64,000 bases of DNA from Peteryoungia aggregata LMG 23059 (GTDB taxonomy: Bacteria; Pseudomonadota; Alphaproteobacteria; Rhizobiales; Rhizobiaceae). Made by a program: the position numbers and the translations under genes. Where the stretch lies: positions 1 to 64,000 of the forward strand of contig NZ_JAUSUW010000001.1 of the NCBI RefSeq assembly GCF_030814435.1. The letters are read 5' to 3'. This document shows, piece after piece, positions 42,902-45,433 of this stretch (position 1 is its first letter; every line of letters starts with the position of its first letter). The notes under the pieces were generated by a model. The model searched no databases. It was not told the DNA's origin and was given only the letters and a program-made list of their open reading frames with translations.

Positions 42902-44101
42902 ATGCCGGCTTTCAAGACACTCGACGATCTCACCGACATCGCAGGCAAGCGCGTGCTTGTCCGCGTCGACCTCAACGTTCCCGTCACCGACGGCAAGGTT
43001 TCCGACACGACGCGCATCGAGCGTGTGGCGCCGACGATCCTCGAACTGTCGGAAAAGGGCGCCAAGGTCATCCTGCTTGCCCATTTCGGCCGCCCGAAGG
43101 GTGAACCCGTGGCCGACCAGTCGCTATCGCTGATCGCGCCCGCCGTCGAGGAAGTGCTCGACCAGCGCGTCGCCTTCGCCTCGGACTGCATCGGAGCTCC
43201 CGCCGCAGACGCCATCGCCAAAATGGAGAACGGCGACATCCTGCTGCTGGAAAACACCCGCTTCCACAAGGGTGAAGAGAAGAACACCCCGGAATTCGTG
43301 GCAGACCTCGCCAAGAACGGCGACCTCTACGTCAACGACGCCTTCTCCGCCGCGCACCGCGCGCACGCCTCGACCGAAGGCCTCGCCCATCACCTGCCGG
43401 CCTATGCCGGCCGCACCATGCAGGCCGAACTTGAGGCGCTCGAAAAGGGTCTGGGACAGCCGACCCGTCCGGTCGTCGCCATCGTCGGCGGCGCCAAGGT
43501 CTCGACCAAGATCGACCTCTTGTCCAACCTCGTGACCAAGGTCGACGCGCTCGTCATCGGCGGCGGCATGGCCAATACCTTCATCGCCGCCCAGGGCATC
43601 AATGTCGGCAAGTCGCTTTGCGAGCACGACCTCGCAGACACAGCCCGCTCGATCATGGAAACGGCAAAGACCGCCGGCTGCGCCATCGTGCTCCCCATCG
43701 ATGGCGTCGTTGCTCGCGAGTTCAAGGCGAACGCTGCAAACGAAATCGTCGACATCAACGCCATCCCCGCCGATGCGATGATGCTCGACGTCGGCCCGAA
43801 GTCGGTCGAGCTGATCAACGGCTGGATCGAAAAGGCAGCGACCCTGGTCTGGAACGGCCCGCTCGGCGCCTTCGAAATCGCCCCCTTCGACAAGGCGACC
43901 GTCTCGGCCGCTCTCCATGCAGCCGAACAGACCAAGGCTGGCAAACTCGTCTCCGTCGCCGGTGGTGGCGATACGGTCTCGGCGCTGAACCATGCCGGTG
44001 TTGCCGGCGACTTCTCCTATGTCTCGACGGCGGGCGGTGCCTTCCTCGAATGGATGGAAGGCAAGGAACTGCCAGGCGTCGCTGTCCTCACCAAGGGCTG
44101 A
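42902..44101 (+). CDS. pgk: Phosphoglycerate kinase
   Basis: 399 aa. It interconverts 1,3-bisphosphoglycerate and 3-phosphoglycerate with ADP/ATP. RVDLNVP near residue 20, AHFGRPKG near 61, and the C-terminal GGGDTVSAL loop are the family marks. Full length. It follows the antiporter gene by 84 bp and may depend on that promoter. A strong terminator separates it from fba. Confidence 0.97.
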
Positions 44102-44133
44102 TCTCGGCGGCAAGCCGACTGGACAATACCGAA

Positions 44134-44162
44134 CCGCGCGCCTCCCGGGCGCGCGGTTTTTT
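44134..44162 (+). terminator. Terminator after pgk
   Basis: A 9-bp stem CCGCGCGCC/GGCGCGCGG with a 5-nt loop and six T. Confidence 0.9.
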
Positions 44163-44318
44163 CGTGCGCATCGTCATTTGGCCGTCAGCCCAGACATGTT
44201 AATATATACCTGAGGGGAACCTTGGTCCGGTCGAAGGGTTGTGATTTCCGGAGGCTGGCGGTGTGACGGTCGCAGATCGGCTGCCGATTGAACCGCATTT
44301 AAAAATCTTTGAATTTTC

Positions 44319-44345
44319 AAACGATTGAAATCATTTCAATCGTTT
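44319..44345. promoter_or_regulatory. 27-bp perfect palindrome, candidate operator of fba
   Basis: Arms AAACGATTGAAAT and ATTTCAATCGTTT are perfect 13-bp inverted copies around a single C. Flanking TTTCAA (44315-44320) and TTTCAA (44343-44348) add half-sites, giving a ladder of TTTCAA/TTGAAA elements. It lies about 175 bp before the aldolase start. The half-site resembles those of LacI/GntR-type sugar regulators, but no regulator is encoded nearby. Confidence 0.55.
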
Positions 44346-44518
44346 CAATAGGTTAGCAGGCCATTTTCCGTTCGGGCAAGTTCTGTTATCGCCGAAGTCA
44401 TCGCGGTCTTGAAGACCGAAGGCGGTCACGGACTGATCGGGGCGGCTGGGCCGAACGGTCAAGAGAGCAAAGAAGTGGTCGGCGCCTGGCGCGCCATGTT
44501 CAGGGATAGGAGTGAGAT

Positions 44519-45433
44519 ATGGTGGACGCGAAGATGTTGAACACGATGACCTCGGCACCGGGGTTCATTGCAGCGCTGGATCAGAGCGGCGGTTCGACAC
44601 CCGGCGCCCTGCGTCTCTATGGCATCGCAGAAACCGACTACCAGGGCGACGATGAGATGTATCGCCTGATCCATGCCATGCGCGTGCGCATCATGAAGGC
44701 GCCAGCCTTTACCGGCGACAAGGTGATCGGCGCGATCCTCTTCGAACGCACCATGGATGGTGACGTCGACGGCCTGCCCGTTCCGTCCTTCCTCTGGGAG
44801 AAGCGCGGCGTCGTTCCTTTCCTGAAGATCGACAAGGGCCTGCTCGAAGAAGAGAACGGCGTTCAGATGATGAAGCCGATGCCCGACCTCGACGCCCTGC
44901 TGATCCGCGGACGCGAGAAGGGCATCTTCGGCACCAAGATGCGCTCGGTCATCGCCCATGCCGACAAGGCCGGCATTGCAGCCGTGGTCAAACAGCAGTT
45001 CGAAGTGGCCCGCCAGATCATTGGCCAGGGGCTGGTTCCGATCATCGAGCCGGAAGTCTCGATCAAGAGCCCGACCAAGGTCGAGGCTGAAGCCATCCTG
45101 CGCGACGAGATCGCGGCTGAACTCGACAAGCTGCCATCAGGCGACAAGGTGATGCTGAAGCTCACCATCCCGACGGTCGCCGATTTCTACGCCCCGCTGA
45201 TGTCCCACAATGCAGTCGTCCGCGTTGTGGCTCTCTCCGGCGGCTACAGCACGATGGATGCCTGCGACAAGCTGAGCCGCAACCACGGCATGATCGCGAG
45301 CTTCTCGCGGGCGCTCGCCGAACAGCTGCGGGTGAGCATGAGCGACGCGGAGTTCAATGCCAGCATCGCGAAGACCATCGACCAGATCTACGCCGCAAGC
45401 GTCGTGAAGGTCGGAGCCATGGCGGCCGAGTAA
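44519..45433 (+). CDS. Class I fructose-bisphosphate aldolase
   Basis: 304 aa. It cleaves fructose-1,6-bisphosphate through a Schiff base, without metal. Candidate catalytic residues are K214 in VMLKLTIP (Schiff-base lysine), E177 in PIIEPEV and K140 in GTKMRS. The length is short compared with animal aldolases and matches the bacterial class I branch found in rhizobia. GGAG precedes the ATG. It has its own control region and terminator, so it is regulated separately from tkt-gap-pgk. Confidence 0.93.
   Translation: MVDAKMLNTMTSAPGFIAALDQSGGSTPGALRLYGIAETDYQGDDEMYRLIHAMRVRIMKAPAFTGDKVIGAILFERTMDGDVDGLPVPSFLWEKRGVVPFLKIDKGLLEEENGVQMMKPMPDLDALLIRGREKGIFGTKMRSVIAHADKAGIAAVVKQQFEVARQIIGQGLVPIIEPEVSIKSPTKVEAEAILRDEIAAELDKLPSGDKVMLKLTIPTVADFYAPLMSHNAVVRVVALSGGYSTMDACDKLSRNHGMIASFSRALAEQLRVSMSDAEFNASIAKTIDQIYAASVVKVGAMAAE

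What the first reader, a model, noticed from the sequence alone, without database searches (positions are those of the whole stretch)
44313..44348. Long compound palindrome upstream of class I aldolase
A perfect 13+1+13 palindrome with extra TTTCAA half-sites on both sides is rare in a GC-rich genome and lies in the aldolase control region. Several overlapping pairs (TTTCAA-N4-TTGAAA and TTGAAAT-C-ATTTCAA) could serve two dimers. A sugar-responsive regulator encoded elsewhere is implied.
Basis: partly seen in the sequence, partly recalled or inferred. Interest (0 to 1): 0.55.

Follow-up and report, generated by a model that had tools for sequence, protein, structure and literature searches.

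The report
Twin operators for carbon-metabolism regulator PckR
The long palindrome is a pair of neighbouring binding sites that best fit PckR, a known switch of carbon metabolism in rhizobia, and the same pair also sits at the lysis gene of a phage-like gene transfer particle, which could tie DNA transfer between cells to their carbon supply.

Summary
In detail: a perfect 13+1+13 palindrome at 44319-44345, absent from 60 random windows. It is not one unit but two tandem 16-mers, TTTCAAACGATTGAAA (44315-44330) and TTTCAATCGTTTCAAT (44334-44349), centres 19 bp apart, upstream of fbaB. The 19-bp pair is kept in 79 of 80 named relatives; the perfect mirror in only 31 of 80 fbaB loci, window included. 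Motif, gene and number of sites match what papers report for PckR at fbaB. Similar sites precede pckA, an eda and eno here. A conserved LacI protein 16 kb from eda is the probable PckR. Unexpectedly, the only other strict 19-bp pair in this genome lies at the endolysin gene of an RcGTA-like gene transfer agent cluster. Among fetched loci the pair precedes 37 of 37 GTA-context endolysins in the genus and 0 of 7 other homologues; in other genera 10 of 20 and 0 of 13. It lies close behind a CtrA-type box in 35 of the 37. PckR control of GTA lysis is the bold reading; binding and sign are untested, and this genome's own GTA cluster looks damaged or incomplete.

The parts
44319..44345 (.). perfect 13+1+13 palindrome (inner part of the operator pair)
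44315..44330 (.). operator 1, TTTCAAACGATTGAAA, core AAACGATT
   Evidence: core kept in 79 of 80 relatives at 19 bp from operator 2; PWM score 25.4
44334..44349 (.). operator 2, TTTCAATCGTTTCAAT, core AATCGTTT
   Evidence: as operator 1; PWM score 23.4; these two are the only places in the window scoring 8 or more
44363..44391 (+). candidate fbaB promoter, ATTTTC (44363-44368), 17 bp, TTATCG (44386-44391) with TG before it
   Evidence: conserved at fixed distance from the pair in 80 aligned loci; reading as a promoter is inference, a generic scan found none
44519..45433 (+). fbaB, class I fructose-bisphosphate aldolase, presumed target
42902..44101 (+). pgk, upstream neighbour
44132..44162 (+). 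GC-rich 11-bp hairpin followed by a T run, probably the pgk terminator
   Evidence: not flagged by the terminator scan

Best explanation
The palindrome is a tandem operator of two CG-centred sites, 19 bp apart, for the LacI-family regulator PckR, upstream of fbaB. SHOWN here: the two sites, their constant spacing in relatives, conserved blocks downstream of them, similar sites before pckA, an eda gene and eno in this genome, and a conserved LacI protein near eda. FROM PAPERS (passages read, not the original PckR study): PckR core TNNAANCGNTT; two sites at fbaB and pckA, one at zwf, mgsA and eda2; less fbaB and pckA transcript in an R. leguminosarum pckR mutant; PEP as effector. INFERRED: P0002 is PckR; two PckR dimers bind side by side upstream of the fbaB promoter and activate it when PEP does not hold PckR in its other state. 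The 13+1+13 mirror arises because two near-palindromic sites of opposite orientation mirror each other about their midpoint.
For: 79 of 80 named relatives keep two AANCGNTT cores exactly 19 bp apart. In a family sample 43 of 151 genomes have a strict version of the pair, with 2 control matches; of 29 such loci not seen before, 26 lie beside pgk and/or fbaB. Core and two-site count fit the PckR description; fba, pckA and eda are in the predicted PckR regulon; fbaB and pckA fall in a pckR mutant. Sites before pckA, eno, a PfkB kinase gene and 14 bp before an eda open frame. P0002 has a match in 143 of 151 family genomes, listed orthologues 92 to 50% identical and listed paralogues 40% or less, and lies 16 kb from eda, as pckR RL4145 lies near eda2 RL4162.
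Against: No binding or expression data. P0002 was not aligned with S. meliloti PckR; its naming rests on position and conservation. Single sites are little above control genome-wide: 10 against 6 for the reversed pattern, 7 against 2, and five of those places were left without an explanation. The PWM scan covered the window and chosen loci, not the genome. PMC4052901 predicted repression, not activation, of fba, and the two later papers differ on the group to which mgsA belongs. L080, the one relative without the pair, was not followed further. Three of the 143 genomes have only weak P0002 matches (best E 1e-30 to 1e-43).
Confidence: 0.8

Rival explanations
1. Another LacI-family protein of the AglR/ThuR kind is the main occupant of the pair, for example the one at G000:C6:339713 that has a matching site beside it.
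For: Its gene is flanked by ATTCAAACGATTTAAA. PMC8877191 says that ThuR and PckR motifs overlap. The genome has 19 LacI proteins.
Against: Published work ties fbaB and pckA to PckR. I did not test how conserved the other LacI proteins are.
Confidence: 0.12
2. The inverted repeat acts as an RNA hairpin or cruciform in the fbaB leader.
For: The RNA of 44305-44360 folds better than all 200 shuffles (-11.8 kcal/mol, z -3.5).
Against: Mirror pairing is perfect in only 31 of 80 fbaB loci and 0 of 44 GTA loci while cores and spacing stay; a stable fold is expected from any long palindrome. The candidate promoter lies downstream, so the repeat may not be transcribed (inference).
Confidence: 0.05
3. 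For the GTA copy only: the pair belongs to a regulator of the GTA system or an unknown factor with a similar site, not to PckR.
For: GTA promoters have their own activators, GafA or GafYZ with IHF (passages). GTA half-sites often differ from fbaB ones (CTCTAAACG), and a 20-bp spacing occurs in 4 loci.
Against: Same core and in most loci the same 19-bp spacing as fbaB; the two strict pairs of this genome are fbaB and GTA.
Confidence: 0.4
4. Chance or neutral sequence.
For: None beyond the local AT-richness.
Against: No 13-base-arm palindrome in 60 random windows; 79 of 80 conserved; 84 against 11 control matches in 40 genus genomes.
Confidence: 0.01

Closest known systems
PckR operators of Sinorhizobium meliloti and Ensifer (fbaB, pckA two sites; zwf, mgsA, eda2 one), as cited in PMC8877191
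   Same: Core TNNAANCGNTT, gene fbaB, two sites
   Different: The fixed 19-bp spacing and its depth of conservation are measured here; the original study was not held, so its spacing is unknown to me. The GTA copy is not mentioned in the passages read.
FruR/Cra operators of enterobacteria
   Same: LacI-family control of central carbon genes with a CG-centred palindrome; PMC4052901 calls PckR a partial functional replacement
   Different: Different regulator and sequence; the Cra motif itself is recalled, not searched
RcGTA and CcGTA promoters (GafA/CtrA in Rhodobacter; GafYZ, IHF, RogA in Caulobacter)
   Same: Phage-type head genes; in R. capsulatus endolysin expression needs CtrA; here a CtrA-type TTAA-N6-GTAA box precedes the pair in 35 of 37 genus loci
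   Different: Here an endolysin gene lies between terminase and portal and carries a metabolic-type tandem operator; none is described in the passages read

Membership tests
PckR operator | Core TNNAANCGNTT | tested here: met
   Both sites fit the core quoted in PMC8877191
PckR operator | Two sites upstream of fbaB | tested here: met
   expected number from the passage
PckR operator | Same motif at other regulon genes (pckA, eda, zwf) | tested here: inconclusive
   pckA and an eda yes; zwf and mgsA not examined; single sites near control level
PckR operator | pckR orthologue in the genome | tested here: inconclusive
   P0002 by position near eda and conservation; not aligned with SMc02975
PckR operator | PckR binds the DNA | not testable with these tools
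   Needs EMSA or ChIP
RcGTA-like gene transfer agent (second site) | Ordered terminase, portal, protease, capsid, adaptor genes | tested here: met
   Met in relatives L161 and L158. In the window's own genome only partly: terminase frame interrupted, no GTA-type capsid found
RcGTA-like gene transfer agent (second site) | Inherited with the host genome rather than as a mobile prophage | tested here: inconclusive
   Terminase in 118 of 151 family genomes, mostly one match; identity follows that of P0002, r 0.75 over 74 genomes; no tree, no check for integrases
RcGTA-like gene transfer agent (second site) | Particles that package random host DNA | not testable with these tools
   Needs particles

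The most novel reading that the evidence does not exclude
PckR, the central-carbon regulator of rhizobia, directly controls lysis and particle genes of a gene transfer agent. The tandem operator of fbaB recurs at the endolysin promoter inside RcGTA-like clusters, with a CtrA-type TTAA-N6-GTAA box starting exactly 34 bp before it in 35 of 37 genus loci, so that carbon status (PEP) and cell-cycle control (CtrA) would meet at one promoter. By position the pair should repress (it lies over or just after the likely promoter, whereas at fbaB it lies upstream); the published rule that two-site promoters behave like fbaB would predict the opposite sign, so the sign is open.
Probability: 0.5. Interest if true: 0.8.

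Novelty: new member of a known kind. Interest (0 to 1): 0.55.

Why it matters
At fbaB the work identifies an unexplained palindrome as a known kind of operator and shows that spacing and cores, not symmetry, are what relatives keep. At the GTA promoter it would give a direct route from carbon metabolism to a host-controlled programme of lysis and DNA transfer. GTA production is said to be inducible by carbon depletion (abstract of PMC9765227); a named candidate regulator with a defined site at one promoter makes that testable in laboratory rhizobia.

Tried and rejected
Single long palindrome as the unit: TTGAAATNATTTCAA with up to 2 mismatches gave one exact place and eight weak ones, so I moved to the CG-centred core. 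RNA hairpin: a good fold, but mirror pairing decays while cores stay. PckR autoregulation: in one genome (G098, L186) a pair-like match lies directly before the P0002 orthologue, but many other genera carry a different palindrome there (TTTAAAC-N-GTTTAAA), so I do not count it. I first took the C19 site for prophage noise; the genus search showed that it recurs. Sites before the terminase in clusters whose lysin lacks the pair: in the 30 terminase loci I saw none that I could assign so. PDB and NCBIfam searches of P0002 gave general LacI-family relatives; no NCBIfam model reached its cut-off. A mention of GTA genes in the pckR-mutant paper: none in the main text; its supplements were not available. 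A generic promoter and terminator scan of the gap found nothing. No structure prediction was run.

Full report
OBSERVATION. The pgk-fbaB gap of the window holds AAACGATTGAAAT-C-ATTTCAATCGTTT at 44319-44345. With a spacer of 0 or 1 it is the only perfect palindrome in the window with arms of 9 or more; 60 Markov windows gave a mean of 0.95 such palindromes and none with arms of 13. The inner string TTGAAATNATTTCAA has one exact place in the genome. A GC-rich hairpin with a T run after pgk (44132-44162) suggests that fbaB has its own promoter; the terminator scan did not flag it.

ANATOMY. The palindrome resolves into two CG-centred 16-mers, 44315-44330 and 44334-44349, centres 19 bp apart. One genome-contig scan with the aldolase returned the best 80 of 459 loci that encode a relative. 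In 79 of these 80, two AANCGNTT cores lie exactly 19 bp apart, between 113 and 246 bp before the start codon. The exception is L080, the least similar relative (79%), which has no such pair in the stretch upstream. The 13+1+13 mirror is perfect in 31 of 80 loci (window plus the 79), whereas the cores define the set and the spacing is constant. So the unit is a pair of sites; the long palindrome is what two near-palindromic sites of opposite orientation make.

REGULATOR. The papers were seen as passages. PMC4052901 predicts a LacI-family PckR regulon in Rhizobiales that includes fba, pckA, eda and zwf, with fba predicted as repressed. PMC8877191 quotes the PckR core TNNAANCGNTT, two sites at fbaB and pckA and one at zwf, mgsA and eda2, and a model in which PEP sets the direction. 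PMC11406972 reports lower fbaB and pckA in an R. leguminosarum pckR mutant. The original study was not held. In this genome the core pattern has 10 places against 6 for the reversed control, and a longer one 7 against 2: single sites are thus weak evidence, the pair is not. Sites lie before pckA, before eno (two), before the probable start of a PfkB kinase gene, and between a LacI gene and a solute-binding protein gene; a PWM scan of chosen loci adds one 14 bp before an eda open frame. Five further places (C4:206589, C5:241919, C8:163081, C1:412298, C4:87612) were left unexplained. Of 19 LacI proteins, P0002 (C1:160698-161744) lies 16 kb from that eda gene; in R. leguminosarum pckR and eda2 are RL4145 and RL4162. 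P0002 has a match in 143 of 151 family genomes; listed orthologues run from 92% to 50% identity and listed paralogues are 40% or lower, three genomes have only weak matches, and 7 of the 8 genomes without a match are of 2.0 Mb or less. I name it PckR by inference.

HOW fbaB CONTROL LIKELY WORKS. Aligning 80 loci on the pair shows conserved blocks within 8-10, 18-24 and 33-49 bp downstream. Read as ATTTTC-17 bp-TTATCG with a TG before the second, they put both operators upstream of the promoter, an activator position, in line with the mutant data and against the prediction. The promoter reading is mine; a generic scan found none.

THE SECOND PAIR. With core-N11-core, the 40 genus genomes sampled give 84 matches against 11 for the reversed control; 40 of 40 have at least one and 38 of 40 at least two. 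I classed one locus per genome for 30 of them: 13 lie at pgk/fbaB, 16 beside a terminase gene and an endolysin gene, 1 at neither. In this genome the second pair is C19:60511-60537, between terminase and endolysin frames. The endolysin matches PHROG 181 and Pfam Glyco_hydro_19, and in relatives the cluster continues with portal, head protease, capsid, adaptor and head closure, as in RcGTA (order recalled).

HOW SPECIFIC IT IS. In the genus sample 39 of 40 genomes have an endolysin match. I class a locus as GTA context if terminase or portal is found in it. Of the fetched loci, 37 of 37 in GTA context (one per genome) have the 19-bp pair, about 105-240 bp before the matched start, and 0 of 7 elsewhere do (Fisher p 2.6e-8). 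Dropped: L208 (contig end), G018 (no match), and weaker or partial matches that I did not fetch. L293 (G026) has the pair beside terminase and portal but no lysin that I could recognise. In other genera 10 of 20 GTA-context lysins have a pair (6 at 19 bp; 4 at 20 bp, two of these with three cores) and 0 of 13 others; L238, with the pair but only a Dabb gene recognised beside it, is left out, as are unfetched weaker matches. Where the gap could be measured, lysins without the pair lie closer to the terminase (5-282 bp in 7 of 8, 1047 in one) than those with it (297-878 bp, 10 loci; Mann-Whitney p 0.003). All these loci are related by descent, so the p-values are descriptive.

POSITION AT THE GTA PROMOTER. 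In 34 aligned GTA loci conservation is upstream of the pair, not downstream. TTAA-N6-GTAA starts exactly 34 bp before the pair in 35 of 37 genus loci, but at that place in 0 of 10 pair-bearing loci of other genera. It resembles the CtrA site TTAAC-N6-GTAAC of the gafA promoter in PMC6363796, where CtrA is also needed for endolysin expression (passages). A promoter in that block would put the pair over or just after the start site, a repressor position; the two-site rule would instead predict the same sign as fbaB. In L130, L132 and L167 the portal match starts about 20-80 bp after the lysin match, so head genes may share this transcript.

LIMITS. There are no binding, start-site or expression data here. 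In the window's own genome the GTA terminase frame is interrupted, and the only Phage_capsid match is a 33% relative on another contig; contig C19 ends inside the region, so the argument rests on relatives. A search for papers holding both 'gene transfer agent' and 'PckR' found none in the held library. Searches of gene transfer agent with LacI (16 papers), with rhizobial terms (20 of 20, 15 of 58 and 15 of 29 papers listed) and with PEP carboxykinase and repressor (1 paper) showed nothing on such control in the titles and abstract starts listed. Subscription papers are not covered.

Noticed in passing
G000:C19:60511-60537 (L119:10512-10538), outside the window: Second strict 19-bp operator pair, at the endolysin gene of an RcGTA-like cluster; recurs across the genus and in part of the other genera sampled.
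   Followed up: yes
G000:C19:58633-59956: The GTA terminase reads as two pieces in different frames, the first with a stop; no GTA-type capsid gene was found in the assembly, so this strain's cluster may be degraded or cut by the contig end.
   Followed up: partly
37 genus endolysin loci (L193-L221, L281-L291), 34 bp before the operator pair: TTAA-N6-GTAA at a fixed place in 35 of 37, a CtrA-type box.
   Followed up: partly
L256, L257, L266-L268, L271-L273, L277 and others, upstream of P0002 orthologues: A conserved TTTAAAC-N-GTTTAAA-like palindrome, perhaps an autoregulatory site of a slightly different form.
   Followed up: no
L128, L129, L138, L143 and others, after the endolysin gene: A Dabb (stress-responsive A/B barrel) gene follows the endolysin gene inside many of these phage-like clusters.
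   Followed up: no
G000:C5:355622-355677 and G000:C2:462319-462334: PckR-like sites before eno (two, 40 bp apart) and before a PfkB-family kinase gene, possible regulon members.
   Followed up: partly
window 44381-44391: A strongly conserved TTCTGTTATCG block at fixed distance after the operator pair in fbaB relatives; read here as part of a promoter, but it could be another element.
   Followed up: partly
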